NCBI RefSeq assembly: GCF_019891175.1
Contig: NZ_CP072600.1
Coordinates: 1,612,001-1,676,000 of the forward strand
Reading direction: 5' to 3'
DNA length: 64,000 nt
Origin: Leptothermofonsia sichuanensis E412
GTDB lineage: Bacteria > Cyanobacteriota > Cyanobacteriia > Leptolyngbyales > Leptolyngbyaceae
Made by a program: the position numbers and the translations under genes. The notes beneath the pieces were generated by a model. That model saw nothing but the letters and a program-made list of their open reading frames with translations, was not told the origin of the DNA and did not search any database. This document shows, piece after piece, positions 5,878 to 59,285 of the stretch. Each line of letters opens with the position of its first letter. Position 1 is the first letter of the stretch.

Positions 5878-8655
5878 TTAGATATCAAAAATTGGTTCCC
5901 AGCCCAGAGCTTCGGCTGGCAGGAACTCAGCACTGACCAGGCTGGTACCTGCCAGTCGCCAGATTGCGTTGTCTCCTGAAATATAGTTACGCCAGAAGAC
6001 TTCCAACTGACCATTTCCTTCCAGATCAATAATGTTTTCGGCTTTCCATCCCAGAACAGTCGGCAATTCGATGGCAGACTGGAACGTCAACCCATTCATT
6101 TGCCAGATGCCGGTCTGGCCACTAACCGTGTTGTACCAGAAGAAGTCGAGGTCACCATCGCCATCCAGATCCGCAATGTCGCCGATCACCCAATCGGGAG
6201 AAATCGTGGTCAGCATCGCAATACTGGCGAGGGACGTATTATCCAGAATCCAGGCTCCAGTTTCACCAGACACCCAGTTGCGCCAGAGAATATCAAGCAC
6301 ATTGTCGCCATTTAAGTCACCCACGGCAGCCACATGCCAGTCCAGATTTGCAGTCGGCAACTCCACAAGGCTACTGAATGTGGCACCCTGCATCACCCAG
6401 ATTCCAGTTTGCCCGGTTACCGTATTGCGCCAGAGAATATCTACCTGGTTGTCCCCGGTAAAGTCAGCAATTTTTTCAACTCTCCAGGCATTGGTCACCG
6501 AGGGCAGCAGTGCAATGGAACCAATGGAAGTGCCATTCATGAGCCAGATGCCAGTTTGCTCGGTCACCAGGTTATGCCATACCAGGTCATCAATGCCATC
6601 ATCGTTAAAGTCACCCCATCCTTCCAGTCTCCAGGTTGAGTCTGCACCTGGCAGGTTATCGATCTGAGCCACAGCCGAGCCATTCATCAGCCAGATCTTG
6701 TTCTCACCCGTGATTGGATTACGCCAGAGAACATCTGCATTGCCATCCAGGTCGAAGTCGGGGCCGTTGCCGTCATCATCCCCGATGCTCCCGATCGCAG
6801 TTCCGTTGGCGATCGCAGCCCCCGTCGGATTGGAGAGGTTGACAGTAAACCGCTCAGTCCCTTCAAGTTTGCTATCACCAACGACTATCACCGTAATCGT
6901 TTGAGAGGTGACCCCAGGAGCAAATGTCAGCGTTCCGCTTGTAGCGATGTAGTCATTGTCAGCAACGGTGGCTGTTCCATCGGCAGTTGAGTAATTGACT
7001 GTGACCGGCTGACCCAGCGCTTCCGATAGCGTGACGGTGAAGGTAAATTCCTTATTGGCGCGAGTTCCTTCACTGCGCTGGACATTGGCAATGCTAAGGG
7101 TGGCTGGTGGGGGGGTGGTCGCTCCACTCAGATCAATCGTCACCAGCCCTGTAATTTGCAGAGGCGGGTCGAAGGGGAAACCACCATACTCGATCAGGTA
7201 TCCCAGGGGGGCATAGTCACCGCCTGGACCAGTATTGGAAAGATCGTTCCACCGACCTTGATTTTCAGGACCCAGCGCGGGATTACCAATCACGTGAGCA
7301 TAGTTTTCATTACCGCCAAAATTATTCGGTTCTCCAACTGCCCAGTTATTGTACTGGCCACAAACCACAGAACCACCAGTTCCCCCCTGCCAGAACTGAA
7401 GTCCTGCCTCTGGACCCGTTACCCAGCGCCAGGCTCCTTCCTCGGCAGCGTCACTGGCTCCAATCCAGCCGTTCCCCTGGACTTTCGTTTCAATGAATGC
7501 CTGCTCAGAAGCACTGGTAATCGTCGCCAGATATCCATGTAACCCAAAGTAAAGGGTAGTATCTGCAATATTGAAGGCATCCGTCCAGGTGATGTTTGGC
7601 GCGGAGACGAAGTTATAGAAGTGGCCGTTTTCCGGGTTGTACAGAGCCGATCCCAGATTGTACTGGACGCTCCGAGAGGCAGGGGATGGCGTACCACTGA
7701 GGTTGGTATAGGTCACCTGACGCAGAGCAGCCTGATAAACATCAACCCCTGCCACACCGGAAAATGTCAGCACCCCTGAATTGATGTCATAGTTCCAGTT
7801 CAGTCCATTGACGGTGCCACTAGTGCCAGCCTGTCCCTGGATGCCCAGCCGATCCTGACTGGGGTTGAAGTTGGTTGTAATGTTGATTGAGGCTCCATCC
7901 AGGGTGGCGGTGGGGTCATCGGGATCAACAACTGTCAGATTGGGTGCCAGCAGGACAGAGGAACCAATGAACTGGTAGTTGACGGTGCCAGTTACTTCGT
8001 CCAGCACGGGCACGAGAATGTACGCATAGTTGGCTAAAACCTCTGACTGGAATGCCAGAGAACTTTCAATGCTGCCAGTGCTGACTTCCAGAATCCAGTT
8101 ACCACCCAGACTGGCACTGCCGGTCAGGTCATTGGAGGCTGCCACATCGGCTCCGGTCAACTGGCTAAGGATGTGGACGAAGGCAGTTCCCAGGTCTCCC
8201 TGAGCAACGTTGCAGCCATACAACAAAATATCGGCGTTGGGAGCCAGGGCACTGCTCCAGGATTGGATCTGGCTGGCATAATCCTGCAAGTTGTAGAGGT
8301 TGAGTGAGTTGTCGCCAAATCGAAGACCACCAACTTCACCGTGAGAAACAATGTGAAGACTGGAAACTTGCTGTCGTCCCATCAGAACAGCCGTAATTTG
8401 GCTGACGGCATCCTGAGCGGAGTCGAGGATGTAGACTTCAGTGCCCGCAGTCACACCGTCAACCAGGCTCTGATAGTCGTCCAGGTCTGAATCGATGAAG
8501 AGCAGGGAAGAGGACTGGAAAGGACGAGGGATGGGCCGATTGGATGTGAGAGAATTGCTTTCCACCAGCAACGAGCTTGCACCGAGTAGAGACGATTCAG
8601 GAACGCTGGAGGTTGGTTGAAAGGTAGATGAAAGAGACGATAGAAAAGAACCCAT
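5878..8655 (-). CDS. Mosaic surface protein: DUF4347, C-type lectin, Calx-beta, FG-GAP/VCBS repeats
   Basis: A 925-residue exported-type protein. The DUF4347 domain (~40-205) has a caspase/CHAT-like dyad: HIVSHG (His105) and LLYGCNV (Cys148). A bacterial-Ig/cadherin-like stretch (~225-335) follows, then a C-type-lectin fold (~338-495, with WIGASD, WRWVTG, NNWAVGEPNN, ENYA and RWNDLS), then a Calx-beta domain (~515-630). Last come about six FG-GAP/VCBS-like units (~635-925), each with DFNDDGIDDLVWHN-type calcium loops and TG.W.MNG. I start at ATG 8655. The longer frame starts at TTG 8685. No clear Sec signal peptide is seen, as is usual for DUF4347 proteins, which may leave by type I secretion. 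It is probably a calcium-binding adhesin or sensor, possibly self-processing through the dyad. Confidence 0.75.
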   Translation of the reverse strand: MGSFLSSLSSTFQPTSSVPESSLLGASSLLVESNSLTSNRPIPRPFQSSSLLFIDSDLDDYQSLVDGVTAGTEVYILDSAQDAVSQITAVLMGRQQVSSLHIVSHGEVGGLRFGDNSLNLYNLQDYASQIQSWSSALAPNADILLYGCNVAQGDLGTAFVHILSQLTGADVAASNDLTGSASLGGNWILEVSTGSIESSLAFQSEVLANYAYILVPVLDEVTGTVNYQFIGSSVLLAPNLTVVDPDDPTATLDGASINITTNFNPSQDRLGIQGQAGTSGTVNGLNWNYDINSGVLTFSGVAGVDVYQAALRQVTYTNLSGTPSPASRSVQYNLGSALYNPENGHFYNFVSAPNITWTDAFNIADTTLYFGLHGYLATITSASEQAFIETKVQGNGWIGASDAAEEGAWRWVTGPEAGLQFWQGGTGGSVVCGQYNNWAVGEPNNFGGNENYAHVIGNPALGPENQGRWNDLSNTGPGGDYAPLGYLIEYGGFPFDPPLQITGLVTIDLSGATTPPPATLSIANVQRSEGTRANKEFTFTVTLSEALGQPVTVNYSTADGTATVADNDYIATSGTLTFAPGVTSQTITVIVVGDSKLEGTERFTVNLSNPTGAAIANGTAIGSIGDDDGNGPDFDLDGNADVLWRNPITGENKIWLMNGSAVAQIDNLPGADSTWRLEGWGDFNDDGIDDLVWHNLVTEQTGIWLMNGTSIGSIALLPSVTNAWRVEKIADFTGDNQVDILWRNTVTGQTGIWVMQGATFSSLVELPTANLDWHVAAVGDLNGDNVLDILWRNWVSGETGAWILDNTSLASIAMLTTISPDWVIGDIADLDGDGDLDFFWYNTVSGQTGIWQMNGLTFQSAIELPTVLGWKAENIIDLEGNGQLEVFWRNYISGDNAIWRLAGTSLVSAEFLPAEALGWEPIFDI

Positions 8656-28818: not shown

Positions 28819-28929
28819 AGAGATGAAGAGATGAAGGGGTGAAGGAGTGAAGGATGAAACTGCTCCTGACTATTGACTAACCTCACTCCTCACTTCTCAT
28901 TAAACAACTTCCCCTCCACCCTGTGTGCC

Positions 28930-30357
28930 ATGATTGCCCTGACGATCGCCTGGATCACCCTTCCCTTTTTCATCGGGTTCATCGGTTACATGCTGCCTGG
29001 CATGGCAACCTACCTTGCCCTGGGAGGGGCGATCGCCTCTACAGGTTACGCCCTGCGGCTGTTTACCCAATTGCCGCTGACTCTGTCATTATTGGATAAC
29101 TTTGGCGTCACCTTACTGCTGGATCCATTGGGTGGCTATTTCATTCTGACCAATGCCCTGGTCACCCTGGCAGTGATTCTCTACTGCTGGCGTACCGGCA
29201 AGACAGCTTTCTTTTATACACAGCTCATCATTTTGCATGGGAGTGTCAATGCTGCTTTTGCCGCGGCAGATTTCATCAGTCTGTATGTGGCCCTGGAGGT
29301 CATCAGCGTTGCGGCGTTTTTGCTGATTACCTATCCCCGCAGCGATCGCTCCATCTGGGTGGGGTTGCGTTATCTGTTTATCAGCAACGTTGCCATGCTG
29401 TTCTACCTGGTGGGGACAGCCCTGGTTTATAAAGCAACTCACTCCTTTGCCTTTAGCGGACTGGGGCAGGCAACGCCAGAAGCGGTTGCCCTGATTGGTC
29501 TGGGGCTACTGGTCAAGGGTGGCATCTTTGTTTCAGGACTGTGGCTCCCCCTGACCCATTCCGAGGCAGAAACCCCCGTATCGGCAATGCTGTCAGGGGT
29601 TGTGGTCAAGGCAGGGGTCCTGCCCCTGGTTCGTTGTGCCCTGCTGGTAGAGGAAATTAACCCCCTGATCCGGGGTTTTGCGGTTGGGGCAGCTCTGTTG
29701 GGCGTGATCTATGCCATCTTTGAACAGGATACCAAGCGGATGCTGGCATTCAGTACCGTCTCACAATTAGGCTTTGTTCTGGCGGCACCGGAGGTGGCAG
29801 GCTTCTATGCCCTGACCCATGGTTTAGTCAAATCAGCCCTGTTTCTAACGGTGGGGACCCTTTCCAGTCGGAACCTGAAGGAGTTGCAATCCCAATCCAT
29901 CCCCACCCCGCTCTGGATTGTCCTGGTGATTACCAGTTTCTCGATTTCAGGGTTTCCTCTGTTGTCGGGGTTTGGAGCCAAGGTTCTGACCATGAAGAGT
30001 TTATTGCCCTGGCAGGTGGTTGGGATGAATGTAGCCGCTCTAGGAACTGCGATCGCCTTTGCCAAATTTATTTTTCTACCTCATAAAAAAGAGAGCCTCA
30101 ATCTGAGACCGGGGTTCTGGGCAGCCGTGGTTCTGCTAACGGGTGGCTTGATTGTGGCAAATGTCGCCTACTACGATGCCTATACCCTTGAAAATATTGC
30201 CAAACCTCTGGTAACGATCGCCCTCGGCTGGGTAGCATACTGGCTGATTGTTCGACGCACTGAGGTCAAACTACCCCGGCTATTGGAGCAATTTGATCAT
30301 CTGATTGGGGTGATGAGTTTGATGCTGATCCTGCTGTTCTGGATGGCATTCGCATGA
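28930..30357 (+). CDS. mrpD: MrpD/NdhD5-type antiporter subunit
   Basis: A 475-residue membrane protein of the proton-pumping NuoM/N-MrpD family, with ~13-14 segments. Key features: YVALEVISVAAFLLI (the conserved Glu of TM5), GLGLLVKGGIFVSGLWLPLTHSEAETPVSA (shown in part; Lys and His channel residues, ~195-225) and FEQDTKRMLAFSTVSQLGFV. In Synechocystis, ndhD5 and ndhD6 flank a small MrpC-like gene, the same order as here. Together with MrpC, MrpD2 and MrpE it should form a Na+/H+ antiporter complex in the cytoplasmic membrane. Start: ATG 28930, aligned with the paralogue at 30752. Confidence 0.85.
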   Translation: MIALTIAWITLPFFIGFIGYMLPGMATYLALGGAIASTGYALRLFTQLPLTLSLLDNFGVTLLLDPLGGYFILTNALVTLAVILYCWRTGKTAFFYTQLIILHGSVNAAFAAADFISLYVALEVISVAAFLLITYPRSDRSIWVGLRYLFISNVAMLFYLVGTALVYKATHSFAFSGLGQATPEAVALIGLGLLVKGGIFVSGLWLPLTHSEAETPVSAMLSGVVVKAGVLPLVRCALLVEEINPLIRGFAVGAALLGVIYAIFEQDTKRMLAFSTVSQLGFVLAAPEVAGFYALTHGLVKSALFLTVGTLSSRNLKELQSQSIPTPLWIVLVITSFSISGFPLLSGFGAKVLTMKSLLPWQVVGMNVAALGTAIAFAKFIFLPHKKESLNLRPGFWAAVVLLTGGLIVANVAYYDAYTLENIAKPLVTIALGWVAYWLIVRRTEVKLPRLLEQFDHLIGVMSLMLILLFWMAFA

Positions 30358-30419: not shown

Positions 30420-30755
30420 ATGCTAGAAGCCTGTGTATTTGCAACCATCCTGTGCGGTTTTTTTGGCATCATTCTGAAAAAGAATCTGATGATGAAAATC
30501 ATCGCCATGGATGTCATGAGCACAGGCGTGATCGCCTTTTATGTGCTGATTGCATCCCGGCATGGGCTGGTGACTCCCATCCTGTCTACGGCTAAAAAAG
30601 TTGCTTATGCGGATCCCGTCCCTCAGGCGGTGATTTTGACCGCGATCGTAATTGGCTTTTCAATCCAGGCCCTGATGCTGGTGGGCGCCATGAAGCTGGC
30701 ACGGGATAACCCGACCCTGGAAACCAGAGAAATTGAGCAGAATAACGCACCATGA
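30420..30755 (+). CDS. mrpC: MrpC/NuoK-like antiporter subunit
   Basis: A 111-residue protein with three membrane segments, the NuoK-like subunit of the Mrp antiporter. LILKKNLMMKIIAMDVMSTG-type sequence (~18-38) and VPQAVILTAIVIGFSIQALM (~67-86) are family blocks; the second is the QALILTAIVIG motif. It starts with ATG 30420 and its last codons overlap the second MrpD by 4 nt (ATGA at 30752-30755). Confidence 0.85.
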   Translation: MLEACVFATILCGFFGIILKKNLMMKIIAMDVMSTGVIAFYVLIASRHGLVTPILSTAKKVAYADPVPQAVILTAIVIGFSIQALMLVGAMKLARDNPTLETREIEQNNAP

Positions 30756-32206
30756 ATACGCTGACGTTTACCGAAGGTGCGCCTGCCGCGATCGCCTGGA
30801 TTACCTTCCCTTTTATTGCAGGATTCATCGGCTATCTGATTCCAGGGCTGGCTCGCTATCTTGCGCTGGCAGGGACGATCGCATCCACCAGTTACGCCCT
30901 GCTGTTCTTTACTCAACTGCCACTGACCCTGCACCTGCTGGATAGCTTTGGCGTGACCTTGCTGGTCGATCGTTTGAGTGGCTACTTTATCCTGACCAAT
31001 GCGCTGGTGACGATGGCAGTGATTCTCTACTGCTGGCGCAGCCCCAGAACCACTTTCTTTTACATGCAGACCATCATCCTGCATGGCAGCGTGAATGCAG
31101 CCTTTGCCGCGGCGGATTTCATGAGTCTATACGTGGCGTTAGAGGTGATCAGTATTGCCGCGTTTTTGTTGATTGCCTATCCCCGCACAGATCGCTCCAT
31201 CTGGGTGGGGTTGCGCTACCTCTTTACCAGCAACGTTGCCATGCTGTTTTACCTGGTGGGTACCGCTCTGGTTTACCAGGCAACCCATTCCTTTGCCTTT
31301 ACTGGACTGAGGAATGCCTCTCCAGAAGCAGTTGCCCTGATTGGTCTGGGGCTGCTGGTCAAGGGTGGAATCTTTGTCTCAGGGTTGTGGCTCCCCCTGA
31401 CCCATTCCGAATCAGAAACCCCGGTATCAGCGATGCTATCAGGGGTTGTGGTCAAGGCAGGGGTTTTGCCCCTGGTCCGCTGTGCATTACTTGTGGAAGA
31501 GCTTGATCCCCTGATCCGGATCTTTGGTGTCGCGACGGCTCTGTTGGGTGTGGGTTATGCCGTGTTTGAAAAAGACACCAAGCGAATGCTGGCCTTTCAC
31601 ACGGTTTCCCAGTTAGGCTTTGTCCTGGCGGCACCGGAAGTGGGTGGATTTTATGCCCTGACTCACGGGCTGGTCAAATCGGCACTGTTTCTGGTTGCAG
31701 GTGTACTTCCCAGTCGCAACCTGAAGGAGTTGCAATCTCAATCCATCCATACCCCCATCTGGATTGCCCTCGTCATTGCCAGTTTCTCAATCTCAGGATT
31801 TCCTCTGTTGTCCGGGTTTGGGGCCAAGGTCCTGACAATGAAAAGTCTGTTACCCTGGCAGGTGATTGGCATGAACCTGGCAGCACTGGGAACCGCCATT
31901 TCGTTTGCTAAATTCATTTTTCTGCCCCATAAAGCAGATGACCAGGTTAATGTGCAGCCAGGTTTCTGGGCAGCCGTCATTCTGCTGATTGGTGGACTGG
32001 TGGTGGCAAATGTAGCCTATTACGAGGCCTACACCCTGGCAAATATCGCCAAACCCCTGTTTACCATCGCCCTCGGTTGGGTGGCGTACTTCCTGATCTT
32101 CAGGCGCACCCTGCTGAAACTGCCGCGTTTACTGGAACAATTTGATCATCTGATCGGGGTCATGAGTTTGATGTTGGTTTTACTTTTCTGGATGGCACTG
32201 GCATGA
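30752..32206 (+). CDS. mrpD: MrpD/NdhD6-type antiporter subunit (second copy)
   Basis: A 484-residue paralogue of the protein at 28930-30357, with very high similarity through most of its length, so the pair arose by gene duplication. The same functional blocks are present: LYVALEVISIAAFLLIAYPR, LLVKGGIFVSGLWLPLTHSE and FEKDTKRMLAFHTVSQLGFV. It is coupled by ATGA overlaps to mrpC (upstream) and mrpE (downstream). The near-identity of long segments (for example the LGLLVKGGIFVSGLWLPLTH region) hints at continuing gene conversion between the copies. Confidence 0.85.
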   Translation: MNTLTFTEGAPAAIAWITFPFIAGFIGYLIPGLARYLALAGTIASTSYALLFFTQLPLTLHLLDSFGVTLLVDRLSGYFILTNALVTMAVILYCWRSPRTTFFYMQTIILHGSVNAAFAAADFMSLYVALEVISIAAFLLIAYPRTDRSIWVGLRYLFTSNVAMLFYLVGTALVYQATHSFAFTGLRNASPEAVALIGLGLLVKGGIFVSGLWLPLTHSESETPVSAMLSGVVVKAGVLPLVRCALLVEELDPLIRIFGVATALLGVGYAVFEKDTKRMLAFHTVSQLGFVLAAPEVGGFYALTHGLVKSALFLVAGVLPSRNLKELQSQSIHTPIWIALVIASFSISGFPLLSGFGAKVLTMKSLLPWQVIGMNLAALGTAISFAKFIFLPHKADDQVNVQPGFWAAVILLIGGLVVANVAYYEAYTLANIAKPLFTIALGWVAYFLIFRRTLLKLPRLLEQFDHLIGVMSLMLVLLFWMALA

Positions 32207-32798: not shown

Positions 32799-33963
32799 CC
32801 AATTTAAATGGGGTTCAGGGCAGATAGGGCATTCAGGATGAAGGAATATCCTGTGATCGAAGCAATAACTTCTGGAGTCAATTGAGCCAGGAGTTGATCG
32901 ACCTTCGCTTGGAGTTGCTCTAGCGTTTTGAACGAAGCCCACTTCAAATCTGCCTTGAGGTATTCCCACAACCTTTCAATCGGATTTAACTCTGGGCAGT
33001 AAGCAGGTTGAAACAATAAAATCACATTCTCTGGCACCACTAAATCTTTACTGCTGTGAAAACGCCCGTTATCCACTTGTAGAATGTTGAGACTATCGGG
33101 GTAGGCTTTGGAGAACTCCTCGAGGAACGCTTGATAGCAAGCAGTATCCACATGGGAGAATTGCAAGAAAAACGACTCTCCGGTTGCTGGTTCGACGGCC
33201 CCATAGAGCCAAAACGCTTTGAACAACCATAGCCATTGCCCAATCGGTTTGATACCACAAGCAGTAATCAAGCGCCCAATCAGGGTTTTGAGTCCAAAGC
33301 GACTTTCATCCTGAGCAAAATAACGGATAGGACGCTCCTCCTGGATGACTTGCCGAGCATACTGGCTCAACAACTCCAGGTCATCTGCAAGGTTTTTTTA
33401 AATGATTCGCGCCGTTCACAATCCTGCTTGATATTTTGCGGACGAGCCACTTTCAGCTTCGCTTGGAGGCGATAGCGCGTCATTTGGTATACCGCATGAT
33501 ACTCCGCTTCGACACCCAACTCCTCCGCTAACCACTGTTGCACAGCTCCATAACTGGCAAATCCATGTTCCGAGTTCTTTAATCGCTTAGCCAGTGCCTC
33601 TTCCGCCCATTGTGGAATCTTGCGGACACCGCCAGACGACACTTTACGTTCCAGCATGGCACTCACCCCATCTTCCCGATACTGCAATAACCATCTCCCT
33701 ACTGTATTGCGATGTTTCCCACTGTATTGCGATGTTTCCCGATCGCCTTGGCAATCGCACCAATGCTGGGTGGCTTTTCCTGTTTGAGCCAGTACAGCAC
33801 TTGCAGGCGTTCCTTGTCCTTTGGTGTTTCCACTTGTTGCAATTGTTGGACTAGCTCATCGAGACTTTCTTTGACTTTAACCGAGGTGACTCCAGCCATT
33901 GCAGAGGGAATCTAAACTACCCTCTCAGTCTACTCTATTTGCCCTATATCCAATTTAAATCGG
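32799..33963 (-). mobile_element. IS630-family element, copy 1
   Basis: 1165 bp bounded by imperfect ~33-bp terminal inverted repeats: CCAATTTAAATGGGGTTCAG at the left and, reverse-complemented, CCGATTTAAATTGGATATAG at the right, each flanked by TA (32797-32798, 33964-33965), the usual IS630 target. A second, nearly identical copy is at 58122-59285 in the opposite orientation. Left of the element, CTGAAGCAGCCCAATGTCA is shared with the flank of copy 2. On the right it abuts a family-B repeat, which it appears to have interrupted. Confidence 0.88.
32804..33899 (-). pseudogene. IS630 transposase, copy 1, disrupted
   Basis: Three frames make up the transposase. Frame 1 (33899 to 33699) is the helix-turn-helix N-terminus (VKVKESLDELVQQLQQVETP, GAIAKAIGKHRNTV). 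It is broken by a 20-bp tandem duplication (33701-33720 and 33721-33740) whose removal gives GKHRNTVGRWLLQYREDG. Frame 2 (33687 to 33367) ends at an A7 run where a -1 shift leads into frame 3, which holds the DDE core (FAQDESRFGL, LQVDNGRFH, NPIERLWEYLK). So the A7 looks like a normal programmed site, while the duplication is a true lesion. Confidence 0.8.
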
Positions 33964-38447: not shown

Positions 38448-40657
38448 AGACGTGATGCCTGAGAGAGGACAAACCCTATTGTATCGAGATTGTATCGATG
38501 GAAGGGAGTGAGGGGCGACAAAGGTGACAGGTGGACGTTGCCGAAAAGCAATATGAATCGCAACTGAGTTTCGAGCCTGTAGCACCTTTTTCATATCCAG
38601 AATCAGCAACCCCGATAGATGAATGTGGCCTGACCTGGATGGCTACCGCTATATTTTTTAACTCTAGAGGTTTGCCGCGGTTTTGATCGTTTTGCAAATT
38701 TTGATCCAGGCTCGATTTTGGTCTGTGACGGACAGGCTATCCAGGGGCTGATTGGGTGGATAGGCGGCCTGGTATTTCTCGATTTCGGTTTCCTCATACA
38801 GGCAATAGCTCAGGGGTATCCAGATAATGGTCAATCCTTCTGCTTCAGCCGCATCCAGCAAGGGTGGCAATTCGTTTTCAGCAATGAAGTCAGATGCCAG
38901 GAAATCGGGGCTGACCATTAATACTGCGATTTTTGCGGCGGCAAGGGCAGTTGCGATTTCATCTCGCCACTTTGCACCAGGTTGAATCTGAGTGTCATCC
39001 CAGACATTCAAGGTTTGATTACGAATCATTGGTTTCAAATGTTTTTGAAGTTGAGCCAGCCATTCCTGATCGTTGTGGCTGTAGCTAATAAAAACTTGAT
39101 TGCGTTCTGCCATAAAAGGAGATGGGTAAGATGATGAATTTTGATTTGGATACGAAGTGATGACTTCATCAATTAGACTGTGAATATCAACAAATTCATA
39201 ACTCTGCTCACATTCAACCTGATACCGTTTGTTATCCAGACGACGATTGAGATCGGCAAGGCGATAGAAGTGGGGCGTTTGACTGTTGTTGCAGGTGGCG
39301 CAGTTGCAGGGAACCAGTTCAGTGAATTTGAGGCGATCGCCATAGGAATCATGAATCTGCTTGAGTTCGTGACGAACGATAGTCAATAACTCTTTCTGGC
39401 GCTGACCTATGACTCGGACCCGGATTTCGCCTTTGTGGTAGCGGTAGTGTTCAATCACTTCAGCTCTTGCCTGGTCTTGTTTGAGGACAACCCCACTGCG
39501 CCAGACGTGGGATTGTGCCTCGATCAGGGCATGGGTTTCCACAATGAAGCGGGTGAGAATGCCCTTGGGCATGAATTCGCATTCGTAGCGCAGCATCAAA
39601 TTGTGATCAGGTTCCCAATCGTAGATAGGCTGATTTTCGGTCAGAAGCTGGGGGGCGATATAGGTAGCGGAAGCACTGGGAATTTCGTAGCACAGCTTAA
39701 AGTTCATCATCAACTTCAGTAGTTCCGGGCGCATGGTGGCGTACTGGTCTTCGTGCCAGATGGTTGCCAGGTCGGTGCGAGTGAACCGACCAAGGTTTTG
39801 AATCACCTGGGGATTGTCTAACACTTTGTAAACCGCAGCGGTGCCCCAGGTGGGTTTCAAAATGATGGTTTTTTGCAGCAGGTCATCTTCCTGGAAGTGG
39901 AGGCAAACCCCCAGATCATGCAAATAGCCACTCAGTTGCAATTTGTCTTCGTGGCGGGTAAAGCCATGCTGCTGGCAAATGGTCAGGTATGCTTCCAGGG
40001 AAATGTAGTTGCGCGAGTCTTGCTCCAGGGCTTTACGGACTTCTACCCAGGTTTTCGGGAGTTCGCTGCCGACATGGGGCAGGGTACTGATGTGATGCTG
40101 GATTGCCTTCAGGATTTCGGGTAAGCCTCGATTGTCCTTGAGGTTGGTTGCCAGAATGTCTTTCAGGTTGGTGAACTGTCCCCGCAATTGGCGATCGTTG
40201 ATCTCTCGCTTACGGTCCTGTTTCTCGTTTTTGATAATCAGCAGCGGGCTGTTGTCGCTCAATAGCTCTACCACATTCAGCCAGTAGTAGAAATCGGTGT
40301 CTTCTTTACGAGTATCTGCAACCAGAATATAGAGAGAACGTCTGGTCAGGAAAAACTGGTGGGTAGCGTGGTAAATTTCCTGTCCGCCAAAGTCCCAGAT
40401 GTTGACTTGAAATTCCTTACCATCAGGGAGAGGAAATCGCCACTGAGTTACTTCAATACCTTCGGTGGAGCTTTCATCTTCTTGCAGTAAATAGTCTAGA
40501 TTTTCAATTTTTTTTGATAGCGAGGTCTTACCAGCCCCTGGTTCTCCAATGATTAACAACTTTGCTTCACAGAGGAAGTCTTTTCCTGATGTTTCCAGTT
40601 GTCGTAAATATTTTTTAATCGCCCAGATACCTTTCTCTACAATTTCTGGGGGAGGTA

Positions 40658-41786
40658 TACCTTGTCAGGGTATAGTTTTTACTTGTTTAAAGGACTGAAA
40701 ACGCAAGGTTAACAGTGAATCTAACTCAGGTTTATACGTCGTATGACACTGGTTGAGACAAGCAGTAATCGCCTCCTTAAATGCAGAGAAGTCAGCATAA
40801 TAAATCGAATATAAGCATTGCTTCTTGACAAACTTCCACAAGCGCTCAATCAAGTTGAGATTGGGAGAATAGACCGTTAGATACAACAACTCAATGTTCA
40901 ATGATTGAGCCAACTCCATCACAACCGCACACTTCTGATACCGAGCGTTATCCAACACAAGCGTAATCGGAATGTCTAATCCCAGAGCTGCCAGTTTGTG
41001 CAGTAATTCACAGACACTTTGAGCGTTGATATAAGTCTCATTGGTGACGGTGATTAACGCATGAGTCACGGCGTTGAGGGCCCCTAAGACATTGAACCGT
41101 TGCCTTCCTGCCCCCGACTTGATAAACAAGCGTTCAAAGCACCACAAAAACCCTAAGTAGGCCCCCAGAACAAAATGGGCAGCATCGACAAAGAAGACGG
41201 CTCTCTGACCTGCTTTTGCCTCTTGCAGTCGTGGGTCTAGTTTTTTTTGACGAACTCCTCCTGCGCTTCTACATCAGCTTTGGCGGGCAACATCCCCACT
41301 CGCCGACAACGCATCCCCATCGATTTGAGAAACACCCTCACTTGCTCCCGACTACGGACAATACCAGTCAGTTCTTCGATCTTGGCGCAAGCCTGCGCTA
41401 GGGTCTTTGGAGGATTTGCCCGGAAGTATGCTTCCAAAGTCTGTTGATGTTGTTTCAGTTCACTCTGGGGTCGATAAAAGGTCAATTCTTTGAGATTGCC
41501 GATCCCCCCAGTTTCATAATCTCGCAGATAGCTCAACAACGTTGGTTTTGTCACCCGAAGCAACCGGGTAATTTCCTGATGCGAGTATCCTTGACTTTTG
41601 AGATACAACGCTTCCATTTTTTGTTGCACACGCGGATGTGGATGGTGAAAGCGTTCGTAATGTAGTTGCTCAATCTCTTCGGCACTAAAGCTCAGTTGGA
41701 TCATTGGGAGGCACCGTGCTCAACACTCAACGGTCTACCTCATTTCTACTTTATCTAGAGGGTAAAATCTATACCCCGGCAAAGTA
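40658..41786 (-). mobile_element. IS630-family element inside the Roco gene
   Basis: 1129 bp. Ends: TACCTTGTCAGGGTATAG (left) and, reverse-complemented, TACTTTGCCGGGGTATAG (right), about 27 bp of imperfect inverted repeat, flanked by TA on both sides. It differs from the copies at 32799 and 58122. Transcription of its transposase is in the same direction as the Roco gene. It appears complete and recent, since excision would restore the host frame exactly. Confidence 0.9.
40665..41704 (-). CDS. IS630-family transposase, joined by -1 frameshift
   Basis: The first frame (41704 to 41237, 155 residues) holds helix-turn-helix segments (QEITRLLRVTKPTLLSYLRD) and ends FVKKN. At its end, an A8 run allows a -1 shift after which the reading continues KKKLDPRLQEAKAGQRAVFF into the catalytic half. 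That half has all three acidic residues: FFVDAAHF, LVLDNARYQ and NLIERLWKFVKK. The product would be ~345 residues, normal for the family. Nothing else is broken, so I regard it as potentially active. Confidence 0.82.
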
Positions 41787-42916
41787 TAGTTCTAGGGGAT
41801 TCCCACTAAGATCAAGTGATGTCAGATTCTGCAACTGCCCAACTTTCATTGGCAGTGCCTTCAACTGATTGTAGCCAAGGTCAACTATTACCAGGCTCTG
41901 CAACTGTCCGATTTCTGTTGGTAGATCATTCAGGGAATTGTTACTGAGGTAAAGCTCCTCCAGTTTCTGCAATTGTCCAATTTCCGTTGGTAGAGTCCTC
42001 AGTTGATTGGAGTGGAGATCGAACTCCGTCAGACTCTCCAACTGTCCAATTTCTATAGGCAGTGTGTTCAGGCGGTTGGAGCGAAGGTTAAGTGCTGTCA
42101 AATTCTTTAATCGTCCAATTTCCTTCGGTAATGTGCTGAGAAAGTTATCACTGAGGTCAAGCTCAGTCAAATTTTCTAATTGCCCAATACCTACCGGCAA
42201 TATGCTCAGGCGATTCGAGCGAAGGTAAAGCTTAGTCAGATTCTGCAATTGGCCAATTTCTGTCGGCAATACATTGAGATGGTTGGAGTTGAGGAAAAGC
42301 CTGGTCAGATTCTGCAACTGTCCGACTTCTACAGGTAATGTCCTTAGCAGGTTGTAGCTCAGGTAAAGCGCTGCCAGGTTCTTTAACTGCCCAATTTCTA
42401 TGGGTAGGTTGCTCAAGCGGTTGGAGCTAAGGTCAAGGGTTGTCAGGTTCGGCAACTGTCCGATTTCTGCTGGAAGTATGGTCAGGTGGTTGAAGCAGAG
42501 ATCAAGTGCTGTCAGGTTCCGCAATTGTCCAATTTCCGCTGGCAATGTGTTCAAGGAGTTGTAGCGGAGATAAAGGGCGGTCAATTTCTGCAACTGTCTC
42601 ATTTCCCCAGGTAGTGAGGTCAACCCCTTTCGATTCAGATCAAGTTCTGTCCACCCTTCTCTGGCAGCCTGTTCAATCAGTTGCAGCAGTTCCGCTTCTG
42701 TCATCCCTCAATTCCCGCTGGTTTGTTTAATACTGTAGCTGAGGGAAAACGAAATGGGGAGGGTTGGGAGTTGCGTTGAGAGCTAAAAGTTGGAGAGCAG
42801 ATATTTGGAGAGAAGGTAGTGAAGAAAAATAGAATTGTATTCGTCTGGTGGCATCCGTTCCGGGGGTGCTGATTCTGGTTATGAATTAAGGATTGTATAG
42901 ATTGAAACTCCATTTC

Positions 42917-43843
42917 AGAGCTAATTTATAAAGTAAATCTTAAGCAGTCAATCGTCGGATCATCAGACGAATCAAAGAACCATAAATCATGGCTTCACTC
43001 ACCTCTGAATACACTTCATAATCCTTGCTTAAACGTCGGAATCGGTTGATCCAGCCAAAAGTACGCTCTACAATCCACCGCTTCGGAAGGTGCTCAAATG
43101 TCTTGGACCTTCGCTCAATGACCTCTACTCGTACGTGCTCCCCACATACTTGTTGAACGGCGTTGGCAAAATTCTGACCTGAATACCCCTGATCAACCCA
43201 AATCACTTGCAATTTGGCCAACTTTTCCTTGGCTTCATCCAGCACAACAATCGCTCCTAGCCGTTCTGAAGCATTCGCTTCAGTGACCAACACCCCAATC
43301 AATAACCCTTGAGAATCTACAACGATGTAACGTTTACGTCCTTTAACCTTTTTGCCACCATCGAAACCGTAGACCTCCCCCTTGTTTCCGTGGTCTTGAC
43401 AGATTGAGAATCTGCAATCGCCACCCTGGACTGTTCATCTCGACCTAATGTCGTTCGCAATTGCTAGCGTATTTGGTCGTGCATCTGTTGCCAGATGCCT
43501 TTACGTTGCCACTTTTTGAAATAGAAGTACACCGTACTGTAAGGCGGCAGGTCATGAGGCATCATTTCCCATTGGCAACCTGTTCGCTGTACCTAGAAGA
43601 TACCGTTGAGAATCTCCCTGAAATCCACTTCCACGGGATGTCCAAACCCTTTAGGTTTGGGTAATAGTGGCTTTAAGATTTCCCACTCTGCGTCACTCAA
43701 ATCACTGGGATAGGGTTGACGGGTCGGATTGGCGATTTCAGGTAGACGAGTTATCAGGAGCATCATCACTCAACTCGTTCTAGTCTAAAGTCGGCTCAAC
43801 ATTGAGCCGGAACCTCTTTAGCTTCTCTTTATAAATCAGCTCT
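42917..43843 (-). mobile_element. IS5-family-like element, decayed
   Basis: Ends are inverted: AGAGCTAATTTATAAAG at the left and, reverse-complemented, AGAGCTGATTTATAAAG at the right. ~927 bp. It lies just upstream of the Roco gene. An inverted 3' fragment of the same element is at 45899-46165, so the two bracket a 2-kb segment holding another IS and a toxin-antitoxin pair. Confidence 0.75.
42940..43766 (-). pseudogene. IS5-family transposase, with two stops
   Basis: From ATG 43766: LSDAEWEILKPLLPKPKGFG, then REILNGIF-stop, then MMPHDLPPYSTVYFYFKKWQ, then QMHDQIR-stop, then VAIADSQSVKTTE. A frame change follows before GEVYGFDGGKKVKGRKRYIV and the C-terminal part ERRSKTFEHLPKRWIVERTF. The frame change may be the family's normal programmed shift, but the two in-frame TAG codons show the gene is dead. 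Confidence 0.75.
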
Positions 43844-44044: not shown

Positions 44045-45259
44045 GTAGTCTGTCAACTTTGTTTTGATGGATAGATTAGGGGAGAATGGAGAGGCAGATA
44101 CCTCTTACCAACCATGCCCCAAAAGAGATACATCGTAGCCCTTAGCTGTGAAGAGCGGGAGACTTTAGAAAGTCTGACAACAACCGGAAAAACATCCGTT
44201 TATAAACTCAATCATGCTCGAATTTTGCTGAAAGCTGACATCAACCAGGAAGGCGGCGGTTGGCGGGATCAAGATATCAGTGATGCACTCGATATTAGGG
44301 TATCTACGATTGAACGAGTCCGGCAACGCTTTGTTGCACAGAGTTTAGAGGCTGCCTTAGGGCGTCAAACTCCAAGTCGAACCAAGCCCCGCTTACTCGA
44401 TGGCGAACAAGAAGCGCATTTGATTGCGCTGGCGTGTGCCGAGACTCCTGAAGGACAAGGGAAATGGAGCGTTCGCCTGTTAGCAGACCAACTGGTTAAG
44501 TTGGGATATGTAGAGAGCATTTCGCATGAAACCGTGCGGCAAACGCTGAAAAAAACGAACTCAAACCCTGGTTGCAGGAATGCTGGGTAATTCCGCCGAA
44601 GTCCAATGGCGAGTTTGTTTACTACATGGAAGATGTTTTGAGCGTTTATACACGCCCTTATGACCCGCGCTACCCGGTCGTTTGTTTCGATGAAACCAGC
44701 AAACAATTAGTCCTCGAAACGCAAGTTCCCCTCCCCCCCAACCCGGTCAACCGAAGCGCTATGACTATGAATATGAACGCAATGGGGTCTGTAATCTCTT
44801 CATGATTTCTGAACCCTTAGCTGGATGGCGGCATGTAGAAGTCACTGAACGGCGCACCAAACAAGACTATGCCAAACAAATGAAATATCTGGTGGATGTG
44901 CGTTACCCCGATGCCGAATGGATTACCATCGTGCATGACCAACTCAATATTCATGACCCATCTGCCTTGTATGAGACGTTTGCACCTCAAGAAGCCAAGC
45001 GGATTCTAGACAAATTAGAGATTCATTACACACCAAAACATGGCAGTTGGCTTAACATGGCAGAAATTGAACTCAGTGTTTTAGCCCGTCAGTGCTTGGA
45101 TCGTCGCATCCCAGATCAAGATACGTTGAAACGGGAAATTGCTGCTTGGGAAGAACGCAGAAATGATCAATCTCGCACCATTGATTGGCAATTTACGACT
45201 GAAGATGCTCGCATCAAACTTAAGCGACTCTATCCCTCAATTCTTTCTTGACAAGCTAC
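44045..45259 (+). mobile_element. IS630-family element with TAGTAGTCTGTCAA-type ends
   Basis: 1215 bp flanked by TA (44043-44044, 45260-45261). Left end GTAGTCTGTCAACTTTG; right end reverse-complemented GTAGCTTGTCAAGAAAG. These ends are nearly those of the family-B repeats in this window (TAGTGGTCTGTCAAGAATT), so this element type could be their mobilising partner. It lies directly upstream of the DUF4258 toxin gene. Confidence 0.8.
44114..45251 (+). pseudogene. IS630-family transposase, frameshifted
   Basis: Frame 1 (44114-44590) has the DNA-binding half (VALSCEERETLESLTTTGKT, ISDALDIRVSTIERVRQRFV). An A7 run at ~44549-44556 would allow a -1 shift to KKNELKPWLQECWVIPPKSN, likely programmed. 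Further on, a C7 run (~44733-44739) is one base short for reading on into PGQPKRYDYEYERNG and the last part (FMISEPLAGWRHVEVTERRT). The acidic triad is present (CFDETSKQ, VHDQLNIHD, NMAEIELSVL). The C-run indel is probably inactivating. Confidence 0.75.
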
Positions 45260-46696: not shown

Positions 46697-47500
<804 letters not shown>

Positions 47501-56590: not shown

Positions 56591-57655
56591 CTAAGTACAG
56601 GACAAAAGTTTGAGATTGTCCAAGAACTCATCTAATTTATGGTCAAGATTAACGAGTAGGTTGTGCAAGTAATCTAAGCCATATCGGAATAGACTCTGGG
56701 CTTTGCGCCCATGGGACTTGAGTTGAATCGTTTTGTGCGCCTGCCGCCACACCCCCGTTCGCATCACCCAACATAACGCCAATGTGAGGAGCGCAAAGAG
56801 CTTGCGGACTCGGTAGTCATCAATAAAATGGGTCGCTTCGAGGCAGAAGCCCCGAGTTTTGAACGCACCGAACAGGGTTTCTAAATTCCACCGCAGGGCG
56901 TAATCTTTGAGGGCTGAATGGGGTGAATGGTTGGTGACCAAAATCAGTAATTCCTGGGTGTCAAGCCGCAGACCAACGACATACACCCAATGTCCCCACA
57001 CTTGACGGCGTTTGCGTAAAATCTTGGTTTCACCCGCTTTGAGATCGGCAAAGAGGACGCGGCCATTCAGGGCTTTGCTGCCATCACTGAGCGTTTCAGT
57101 TTCGCGAATCCGCCCCCGAAACGGGATTGGCTCATCTTCGAGCAAATAGCCAATCCACTCCCGCCCAACAAATTCGCGGTCGCTCGTCAGGCACCGCAGG
57201 CGGACATCCTCGCCAAAAATCGTGAAGAATTCGTTGAGCAAATCGATGCGCTCTTGGGTGTTGGAATTGCCGCGGTTGTCCAGCATCAGAAACACCACCG
57301 GAAAGGAAATACCCTGATGGCAAATGCCCAGGGTGAGAATGTTGAAAACGCTACCGCCAAAGCTCCATTCGGTGCGGTCTATGGCGAGCACCCAAGGCTG
57401 CGGGATCCCCATCAGGCAGACCACGGCACGGGCAATCGCCGCATAATCGAGATCAAAGTCGCTAAAGAAGCGCTGGAGACGCTTGTAGTTCGACGGAATT
57501 TGGGCGGAACCACAAAAGCTAGCAGCCAATTCGCTCAGATTCACCGTACGGGTTCGTAGCAGGGCGATCAGAAATTGAGCCACAAATGCCAGCCGCGCAC
57601 CATGCCAACCGAGGAGGGGCTGCAAAACTTGGCGAAATTCGGTAATCTGTTGCAT
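56591..57655 (-). CDS. IS4-family transposase, intact
   Basis: 354 residues with the DDE residues in order: VLAIDRTEWSFGG (D1), LTSDREFVG (D2) and YALRWNLETLFGAFK, an exact Y-x2-R-x3-E-x6-K signature of the IS4 family. No frame damage. Its TAG stop is the reverse complement of CTA, the first three bases of the terminal inverted repeat, so the coding region uses the element to its last base. Confidence 0.9.
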   Translation of the reverse strand: MQQITEFRQVLQPLLGWHGARLAFVAQFLIALLRTRTVNLSELAASFCGSAQIPSNYKRLQRFFSDFDLDYAAIARAVVCLMGIPQPWVLAIDRTEWSFGGSVFNILTLGICHQGISFPVVFLMLDNRGNSNTQERIDLLNEFFTIFGEDVRLRCLTSDREFVGREWIGYLLEDEPIPFRGRIRETETLSDGSKALNGRVLFADLKAGETKILRKRRQVWGHWVYVVGLRLDTQELLILVTNHSPHSALKDYALRWNLETLFGAFKTRGFCLEATHFIDDYRVRKLFALLTLALCWVMRTGVWRQAHKTIQLKSHGRKAQSLFRYGLDYLHNLLVNLDHKLDEFLDNLKLLSCT

Positions 57656-58121: not shown

Positions 58122-59285
58122 CCGATTTAAATTGGATATAGGGCAAATAGAGTAGACTGAGAGGGTAGTTTAGATTCCCTCTGCAATGGCTGGAGTCACC
58201 TCGGTTAAAGTCAAAGAAAGTCTCGATGAGCTAGTCCAACAATTGCAACAAGTGGAAACACCAAAGGACAAGGAACGCCTGCAAGTGCTGTACTGGCTCA
58301 AACAGGAAAAGCCACCCAGCATTGGTGCGATTGCCAAGGCGATCGGGAAACATCGCAATACAGTGGGAAACATCGCAATACAGTAGGGAGATGGTTATTG
58401 CAGTATCGGGAAGATGGGGTGAGTGCCATGCTGGAACGTAAAGTGTCGTCTGGCGGTGTCCGCAAGATTCCACAATGGGCGGAAGAGGCACTGGCTAAGC
58501 GATTAAAGAACTCGGAACATGGATTTGCCAGTTATGGAGCTGTGCAACAGTGGTTAGCGGAGGAGTTGGGTGTCGAAGCGGAGTATCATGCGGTATACCA
58601 AATGACGCGCTATCGCCTCCAAGCGAAGCTGAAAGTGGCTCGTCCGCAAAATATCAAGCAGGATTGTGAACGGCGCGAATCATTTAAAAAACCTTGCAGA
58701 TGACCTGGAGTTGTTGAGCCAGTATGCTCGGCAAGTCATCCAGGAGGAGCGTCCTATCCGTTATTTTGCTCAGGATGAAAGTCGCTTTGGACTCAAAACC
58801 CTGATTGGGCGCTTGATTACTGCTTGTGGTATCAAACCGATTGGGCAATGGCTATGGTTGTTCAAAGCGTTTTGGCTCTATGGGGCCGTCGAACCAGCAA
58901 CCGGAGAGTCGTTTTTCTTGCAATTCTCCCATGTGGATACTGCTTGCTATCAAGCGTTCCTCGAGGAGTTCTCCAAAGCCTACCCCGATAGTCTCAACAT
59001 TCTACAAGTGGATAACGGGCGTTTTCACAGCAGTAAAGATTTAGTGGTGCCAGAGAATGTGATTTTATTGTTTCAACCTGCTTACTGCCCAGAGTTAAAT
59101 CCGATTGAAAGGTTGTGGGAATACCTCAAGGCAGATTTGAAGTGGGCTTCGTTCAAAACGCTAGAGCAACTCCAAGCGAAGGTCGATCAACTCCTGGCTC
59201 AATTGACTCCAGAAGTTATTGCTTCGATCACAGGATATTCCTTCATCCTGAATGCCCTATCTGCCCTGAACCCCATTTAAATTGG
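58122..59285 (+). mobile_element. IS630-family element, copy 2
   Basis: 1164 bp, the same element as 32799-33963 in the opposite orientation, with TA at 58120-58121 and 59286-59287. It is one base shorter: the A7 run of copy 1 is A6 here (58686-58691). It cuts the NERD-domain gene on its right. Confidence 0.9.
58186..59280 (+). pseudogene. IS630 transposase, copy 2, disrupted
   Basis: It has the same arrangement and the same 20-bp tandem duplication (58345-58364, 58365-58384) as copy 1. In addition the run before the catalytic frame is A6. From A6 a -1 shift does not reach the DDE frame (a +1 or -2 would), whereas in copy 1 (A7) it does. Two lesions thus separate the DNA-binding and catalytic parts. 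The protein sequences of both copies are otherwise almost the same. Confidence 0.82.

What the first reader, a model, noticed from the sequence alone, without database searches (positions are those of the whole stretch)
38664..42704. LRR-Roc-COR-TIR protein gene switched off by a precisely reversible IS630 insertion
The LRR half (42704 to 41787) and the Roc-COR-TIR half (40655 to 38664) are separated by a complete IS630 element at a TA. Deleting the element and one TA gives 2910 nt, exactly 970 codons, and the junction reads GNPLELPPPEIVEKGIWA, the normal transition from LRR to Roc. No other lesion was seen in either half. TIR domains in prokaryotic defence and cell-death systems often consume NAD+, and Roco proteins join sensing (LRR) to a GTPase switch. 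An LRR-sensing, GTPase-gated TIR effector would be a candidate immune or death module, here silenced by a mobile element that may leave again.
Basis: partly seen in the sequence, partly recalled or inferred. Interest (0 to 1): 0.85.

Follow-up and report, generated by a model that had tools for sequence, protein, structure and literature searches.

The report
Immune-like cyanobacterial gene split by transposon
In a hot-spring cyanobacterium, a gene for a predicted sensor-switch-effector protein of a kind already described has been cut in two at a domain boundary by a recently multiplied jumping element; the break is real, but that it can be cleanly undone is not shown.

Summary
The genome has the size published for Leptothermofonsia sichuanensis E412. 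An LRR half (42704-41787) and a Roc-COR-TIR half (40655-38664) flank a complete IS630-family element (40658-41786) with TA duplications. Neither half has an internal stop. Relatives in Stenomitos, Nostoc and Brasilonema run uninterrupted across the junction. It is the only Roco gene detected in the genome.

LRR-Roc-COR proteins with exchangeable C-terminal effectors, TIR included, were described as predicted conflict systems in 2021 (PMC8195603). The TIR keeps a glutamate at the NADase position, invariant in the 17 sequences aligned. About 40 near-identical copies of the element were found, 16 of 30 checked being identical, so intact halves only show that the insertion is recent.

"Precisely reversible" is not supported: for the relative ISY100, excision and ligation leave TATATA, four extra bases, which would break this frame. 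No empty site of the same species could be examined. Best reading: a recently disrupted gene of a known predicted class. The wider family (28 TIR-tailed among 112 Roc-COR cores; at least 8 tail changes on a quick tree) supports a sensor-switch with exchangeable effectors.

The parts
41787..42704 (-). LRR half of the split gene (306 codons up to and including the left TA); the present ORF runs on five codons into the element to a stop ending at 41769
   Evidence: Pfam LRR models; 160 of 283 residues identical to the LRR part of the Stenomitos relative
40658..41786 (-). IS630-family element, 1129 bp, identical to 15 other copies among the 30 checked
   Evidence: DDE_3 and HTH
41787..41788 (.). 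left TA of the target duplication
   Evidence: 30 of 30 checked copies have TA on both sides
40656..40657 (.). right TA of the target duplication
41762..41786 (-). left terminal inverted repeat (25 bases taken, 21 match the right end)
   Evidence: sequence, counted by eye
40658..40682 (+). right terminal inverted repeat
   Evidence: sequence, counted by eye
41237..41704 (-). transposase ORF 1 (155 aa, helix-turn-helix)
41241..41248 (-). run of eight A, presumed slippage site between the two transposase frames (9 of 30 checked copies have one A fewer)
40665..41249 (-). transposase ORF 2 frame (194 aa, DDE_3); three codons lie between its TGA and the Roc-COR-TIR half, which is in the same frame
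   Evidence: frame read; open frame of 666 codons
38664..40655 (-). Roc-COR-TIR half of the split gene (663 codons plus stop); the first ATG/GTG/TTG of its frame is the TTG at 40559, just before the P-loop
40224..40562 (-). Roc GTPase domain (G1 GEPGAGKTS, G3 DFGGQE, G4-like KNEKQ; motif names recalled)
   Evidence: Pfam Roc residues 32-144; conservation
39642..40058 (-). COR-A domain
   Evidence: Pfam residues 200-338
39168..39602 (-). COR-B domain
   Evidence: Pfam residues 352-496
38670..39104 (-). TIR domain (residues about 518-662)
   Evidence: Pfam TIR_2 residues 521-613; fold matches over about 516-663
38871..38873 (-). E595, invariant glutamate at the NADase position

Best explanation
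This is a recently disrupted LRR-Roc-COR-TIR (Roco) gene. Shown: an IS630-family element, one of about 40 near-identical copies found in the genome, inserted at a TA in the linker between the LRR and the Roc domain; intact relatives run across that point; the split gene is the only Roco gene detected in the genome. Inferred from relatives and from C. tepidum Roco: the intact protein is a single-gene sensor-switch-effector, in which the fast-changing LRR senses a trigger, GTP binding by Roc-COR swings the LRR away about the LRR-Roc linker, and the TIR domain is released or assembled to consume or convert NAD+, stopping growth of an attacked cell. In this strain the one-piece protein can no longer be made, so the module is most likely inactive; nothing found suggests that the insertion is a regulated switch.
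For: Boundaries and frames; domains; intact relatives and junction. In one search, 72 of 80 Roc-COR ORFs, and 14 of the 17 with this TIR tail, carry the LRR in the same frame (of the other three TIR ones two run off their contig and one starts 106 bases from a contig end). Recent spread: 42 matches in the genome (39 full length, one lacking 15 bases, two fragments, 40 of 64 candidates scored); 16 of 30 fetched copies identical, 5 with one mismatch, 9 lacking one A; no match in the same-genus draft genome G001, and in the 57 relatives searched the best long matches are 69-82% identical (a 28-base stretch at 93% aside, up to 7 candidates scored per genome). Published genome: 431 ISs, 67.29% IS630 (PMC8997340 passages). 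Only Roco: the other two Roc hits lie in an IF-2-like and another GTPase ORF (named by eye; the Roc model also rings in 11 of 14 control genomes). Modular effector: at least 8 changes of the TIR label forced by well-supported branches among 112 Roc-COR rows (quick tree); 10 groups among 56 tails not of this TIR type. TIR: E595 invariant in the 17 aligned sequences; fold match to the RPS4 TIR 4c6r_A Z 13.4, rmsd 2.5, 131 aligned, and SARM1 6zfx_A Z 11.2, rmsd 3.2, 129 aligned. CtRoco hinge: PMC11052575 passages.
Against: No expression data: the downstream half is in frame with the transposase after its TGA, so a shortened Roc-COR-TIR could be made. Defence function is prediction only: PADLOC gave only matches in the TIR region; no neighbouring gene recurs in more than 6 of 24 sources (those neighbours were not scanned by family); the gene lies next to polA; no phage test of such a protein was seen. 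TIR domains can also be scaffolds without enzyme activity (recalled; also in the abstract start of PMC7075850). The model of the half had mean pLDDT 60.7 and pTM 0.42, with residues 1-198 (Roc) under 50, and the Roco matches have rmsd 6-8.5.
Confidence: 0.78

Rival explanations
1. Reversible switch: the element leaves precisely in some cells, restoring the protein, so the population holds on and off forms.
For: The halves have no internal stop; TA duplications are intact; the element has recently multiplied. Cyanobacteria often carry several chromosome copies (recalled), so repair from an uninterrupted copy is conceivable.
Against: ISY100 excision plus ligation leaves TATATA, +4 bases, not frame-restoring. 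Lack of decay is expected from recency alone. No empty site of the same species could be looked for; the element here is identical to 15 other copies, so nothing in it is special to this site.
Confidence: 0.06
2. The insertion makes a shortened but active Roc-COR-TIR: transcription from the element, with reinitiation after the transposase stop or start at TTG 40559, yields a TIR-Roco lacking its LRR and perhaps deregulated.
For: The half is open in frame with transposase ORF 2 beyond its TGA; in C. tepidum Roco the LRR folds back on Roc-COR in the nucleotide-free dimer and rotates away about this linker in the GTP state (passages).
Against: The consensus scan gave no minus-strand promoter-like site inside the element, and 5 sites in the region against 5.7 expected (other promoter types are not covered). 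The first start codon is a TTG past the linker helix. A deregulated NAD-consuming protein would be selected against.
Confidence: 0.1
3. Ordinary gene loss with no functional story: a dispensable accessory gene hit at random in a genome with hundreds of ISs, on its way to being lost.
For: 431 ISs reported; by a loose test of open frames 14 of 30 checked copies lie where some frame could continue across, this being the longest; other Roco genes look broken too, e.g. L176 by a stop in the LRR and L188 by a break inside Roc.
Against: Does not conflict with the best explanation; differs only in denying that the intact protein is a conflict module.
Confidence: 0.3

Closest known systems
Prokaryotic AP-GTPase-COR conflict proteins of Kaur et al. 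2021 (PMC8195603; section 15 read)
   Same: N-terminal LRRs, AP-GTPase (taken here as Roc), COR, and a variable C-terminal domain, TIR being listed among at least 24 such domains
   Different: Here the gene is split between LRR and Roc by an IS630-family element
LRR-Roc-COR-TIR of Stenomitos rutilans HA7619-LM2 (L117:5143-7980, also G020) and Nostoc relatives
   Same: Same domain order; 77% identity over residues 1-662 of the second half
   Different: Uninterrupted; no other window gene between 30 and 56 kb matched its neighbourhood
Chlorobium tepidum Roco (PDB 3dpu, 6hlu, 8r4b)
   Same: LRR-Roc-COR core, same PPPEIV linker start; best structural matches of the COR part (3dpu_B Z 17.6, rmsd 8.4, 244 aligned)
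   Different: The match ends before the TIR; whether it carries any C-terminal effector was not examined
ISY100 of Synechocystis (IS630/Tc1/mariner; PMC2170065)
   Same: TA target duplication, terminal repeats, HTH plus DDE transposase, cyanobacterial
   Different: Here the transposase lies in two frames around a run of A; likeness of the two elements was not measured
Plant TIR-NB-LRR receptors (RPS4, RPP1)
   Same: TIR fold match; LRR, nucleotide switch and TIR in one protein (recalled)
   Different: Reverse domain order and an NB-ARC ATPase in place of a Roc GTPase (recalled); likeness of design, not membership

Membership tests
LRR-Roc-COR-effector conflict proteins (Kaur et al. 2021) | N-terminal leucine-rich repeats | tested here: met
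   LRR_8 221.8 bits over P0001
LRR-Roc-COR-effector conflict proteins (Kaur et al. 2021) | Roc GTPase followed by COR | tested here: met
   Roc, COR-A, COR-B over their cut-offs; matches to CtRoco
LRR-Roc-COR-effector conflict proteins (Kaur et al. 2021) | variable C-terminal effector domain | tested here: met
   TIR_2 54.3 bits; relatives with other tails
LRR-Roc-COR-effector conflict proteins (Kaur et al. 2021) | all domains in one open reading frame | tested here: not met
   Split by the element in the window; LRR and Roc-COR share a frame in 72 of 80 ORFs. Filed therefore as a disrupted gene of the class, not a working member
LRR-Roc-COR-effector conflict proteins (Kaur et al. 2021) | role in defence or cell death | not testable with these tools
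   Prediction in the paper; no phenotype seen in the listings
TIR-domain NAD+ hydrolases | TIR fold | tested here: met
   Z 13.4 to the RPS4 TIR 4c6r_A, rmsd 2.5, 131 aligned
TIR-domain NAD+ hydrolases | active-site glutamate | tested here: met
   E595 aligns with the E of ...DEL / ...YEL in solved TIRs (weak sequence matches, best E 0.001) and is invariant in 17 sequences; that this E is catalytic in those proteins is recalled
TIR-domain NAD+ hydrolases | NAD+ cleavage | not testable with these tools
   needs an enzyme assay
IS630 family | insertion at TA with TA duplication | tested here: met
   30 of 30 checked copies
IS630 family | terminal inverted repeats and DDE transposase | tested here: met
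IS-driven reversible (phase-variable) switch | precise empty site found in cells or sister strains | not testable with these tools
   one genome per species is held; in the same-genus draft G001 no Roc-COR match was found and another ORF lies upstream of polA
Catalogued anti-phage systems (PADLOC-DB 2.0.0) | match to a model beyond the TIR domain | tested here: not met
   six hits for the second half, all within residues 496-661; none for the LRR half

The most novel reading that the evidence does not exclude
The insertion, which falls at the hinge between LRR and Roc, has turned a sensor-gated TIR-Roco into a sensorless Roc-COR-TIR that is still made from the element's transcript, giving a natural experiment on whether the LRR holds the TIR in check.
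Probability: 0.08. Interest if true: 0.6.

Novelty: new member of a known kind. Interest (0 to 1): 0.33.

Why it matters
LRR-Roc-COR proteins are the bacterial relatives of human LRRK2, and to my knowledge their natural job in bacteria is unsettled. Versions ending in a TIR tie that GTPase switch to a measurable output (NAD+ loss), so the intact Nostoc and Stenomitos genes found here would let the question 'what do bacterial Roco proteins do?' be tested directly. The split copy itself mainly suggests that such a gene is dispensable in this strain.

Tried and rejected
Recurrent insertion at the linker: the transposase ORF 2 had no tblastn match in the 80 named loci, so no second case there. Intact paralogue in the same genome: none seen; the other two Roc hits are other GTPases by eye. 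Conserved neighbours of TIR-type relatives: apart from the gene itself no family recurs in more than 6 of 24 sources; the neighbours were not scanned for defence families. Plasmid or phage carriage: 49 plasmid records match, one covering at least 80% of the query (H5, residues 13-545, so ending early in the TIR); no phage match. dN/dS on the halves: dS could not be estimated; dN was 0.35 for LRR, 0.12 for Roc-COR, 0.22 for TIR. Promoter scan: 5 found, 5.7 expected. Papers seen: PMC8195603 (passages, section 15 whole), PMC2170065 (passages, section 9 whole), PMC7159879, PMC4104024, PMC11052575, PMC8997340 (passages), PMC6400869 (one passage, a reference); others only as search listings. No paper reporting a test of a TIR-ended Roco protein was seen in the listings; these show only the best 15-25 rows and cover open-licence papers only.
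Full report
What is there. The window is G000:C1:1612001-1676000 of a one-contig genome of 6,426,061 bases. That is exactly the size published for the chromosome of Leptothermofonsia sichuanensis E412 (PMC8997340, passages), a thermophilic cyanobacterium from a hot spring (abstract start); the identification rests on that match and on the relatives being cyanobacteria. On the minus strand, 42704-41787 encodes 306 residues of leucine-rich repeats and 40655-38664 encodes 663 residues with Roc, COR-A, COR-B and TIR_2 domains.

One ancestral gene. The second half matches an uninterrupted 946-residue ORF of Stenomitos rutilans at 77% over residues 1-662, with LRR, Roc, COR and TIR in that order. 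Among 388 genomes of the class searched at E <= 1e-100, 66 have a match, the own genome included; besides the own gene, ten matches in ten genomes reach residue 655 or beyond, that is through the TIR. In the scan of named genomes 107 stretches encode a relative and the best 80 were kept; they gave 80 ORFs with both Roc and COR, 17 of them with the same TIR type at the end, 14 of these 17 with the LRR in the same frame. The junction is colinear: own SGNPLEL / PPPEIVEKG against ENPLESPPPEILKK in Stenomitos and GNPIEKPPPEIVAKG in a Nostoc; the solved C. tepidum Roco has PPPEIVKQG there. Several TIR-type relatives have longer or different linkers, so the exact wording is not universal.

The insertion is recent and ordinary for this genome. 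A search of the own genome gave 42 matches to the element, 39 of them full length, one lacking 15 bases and two fragments (40 of 64 candidates scored, so a lower bound). Of the 30 fetched copies all 30 have TA duplications, 16 are identical including this one, 5 have one mismatch and 9 lack one A. The same-genus draft genome has no match; among the 57 relatives 7 have some match, the best long ones 69-82% identical. The published genome holds 431 ISs, 67.29% of them IS630. With a loose test of open frames on either side, 14 of 30 copies could lie in a frame that continues across; this site is the only one with more than 300 codons on a side (307 and 499, the latter limited by the flank). So the clean state of the two halves is what recency predicts and is no sign of upkeep.

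Can it be undone? The studied relative ISY100 is cut almost always two nucleotides inside its 5' ends, and the religated donor reads TATATA (PMC2170065 section 9). If this element behaves alike, leaving would add four bases to the empty TA and break the frame. Exact restoration would need repair from an uninterrupted copy or slippage. I could not look at other isolates; the same-genus draft G001 shows no Roc-COR match and carries another ORF upstream of polA. 'Precisely reversible' is therefore an assumption.

How the intact protein probably works. Shown: domain content; conserved GTPase motifs; a TIR with fold matches to RPS4 (4c6r_A Z 13.4, rmsd 2.5, 131 aligned) and SARM1 (6zfx_A Z 11.2, rmsd 3.2, 129 aligned), and a COR part matching C. 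tepidum Roco (3dpu_B Z 17.6, rmsd 8.4, 244 aligned); E595 invariant in the 17 sequences and the 11. The predicted model is weak: mean pLDDT 60.7, residues 1-198 under 50, TIR blocks 521-660 between 72 and 89. Shown for C. tepidum Roco by others: GTP binding turns a compact dimer into an open monomer, with the LRR rotating about 135 degrees on the LRR-Roc linker and alpha-0 helix (PMC11052575 passages). Inferred: LRR senses, Roc-COR switches, TIR acts on NAD+. The divergence agrees with a sensor that changes fastest: 56.5% identity in LRR (160 of 283), 80.7% in Roc-COR (405 of 502), 68.9% in TIR (104 of 151) against Stenomitos. The element sits just before the stretch that corresponds to the alpha-0 helix, at the hinge (inferred from the alignment).

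Exchangeable effectors. In a quick tree of 112 Roc-COR rows, 28 have a tail like the own TIR (BLAST E <= 1e-3), 3 only a TIR-like motif and 81 other tails; the TIR label needs 9 changes, at least 8 by well-supported branches. Two TIR rows (L114, L116) are long-branched and their place is unsure. A Nostoc TIR form (L128) is sister to a Desmonostoc form with another tail (L139) at 99 support. Of 63 ORFs without this TIR type, 7 with short tails were dropped; the remaining 56 tails fall into 10 groups, one of them (L140, 3 rows) with a different TIR. Of ten proteins scanned (nine tails and one neighbouring ORF), Pfam named CHAT in one, AAA/TPR in one and TIR in two; one tail matched only ARMH5 and DUF6860, one only a sub-threshold model, and four nothing. 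This agrees with Kaur et al. 2021, who list at least 24 C-terminal domains including TIR, caspase and GT4. The class is thus known as a prediction; I saw no experimental test of a TIR-ended member (listings, within an open-licence library).

Verdict. Observation confirmed; architecture real and already described; disruption real and recent; silencing of the full-length protein likely; reversibility and immune role unproven. The split gene is a disrupted member of a known kind; the intact relatives are the better material for experiments.

Noticed in passing
L035:7847-10240 and L035:10270-11430 (G024): An LRR-Roc-COR open frame of 797 codons without TIR is followed about 30 bases on by a separate 386-codon open frame ending in the same TIR type: a two-gene version of the module.
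   Followed up: partly
L188:5008-8061, L176:5284-7839, L134 around 5900-6000: Other Roco genes look broken without an IS630 of this type: a break inside Roc, an in-frame stop within the LRR, and almost no LRR left before Roc; sequencing errors not excluded.
   Followed up: partly
L128:3524-6235 versus L139:4972-7902: Sister Roc-COR cores with TIR in one and an unrelated tail in the other: a fairly recent effector exchange.
   Followed up: partly
own genome, 30 checked IS630 copies (L054-L083): Two length classes of the A run (8 or 7, apart from three copies with a base change in or at it) among otherwise near-identical copies; by the translations the two transposase frames are not joined with 8 or 7 A.
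   Followed up: partly
L168:7468-9621, L171:2099-3232: Roco tails with an AAA/TPR stretch and with a CHAT domain.
   Followed up: no
window 32804-33373, 42940-43302, 44114-45251, 46739-47500, 56591-57655, 58666-59280: Further transposase-like ORFs of several types by eye, one pair (32804-33373 and 58666-59280) sharing most of its protein sequence; the split gene lies at the edge of an IS-rich stretch (families not tested).
   Followed up: no
window 28873-30357 and 30752-32206: Two neighbouring, very similar membrane proteins resembling NdhD/MrpD subunits, apparently a tandem duplication (by eye).
   Followed up: no
L047:6358-7065 (G053): A 235-codon open frame with a charged coil-like N-terminus and the same TIR type, perhaps an adaptor-linked stand-alone form.
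   Followed up: no
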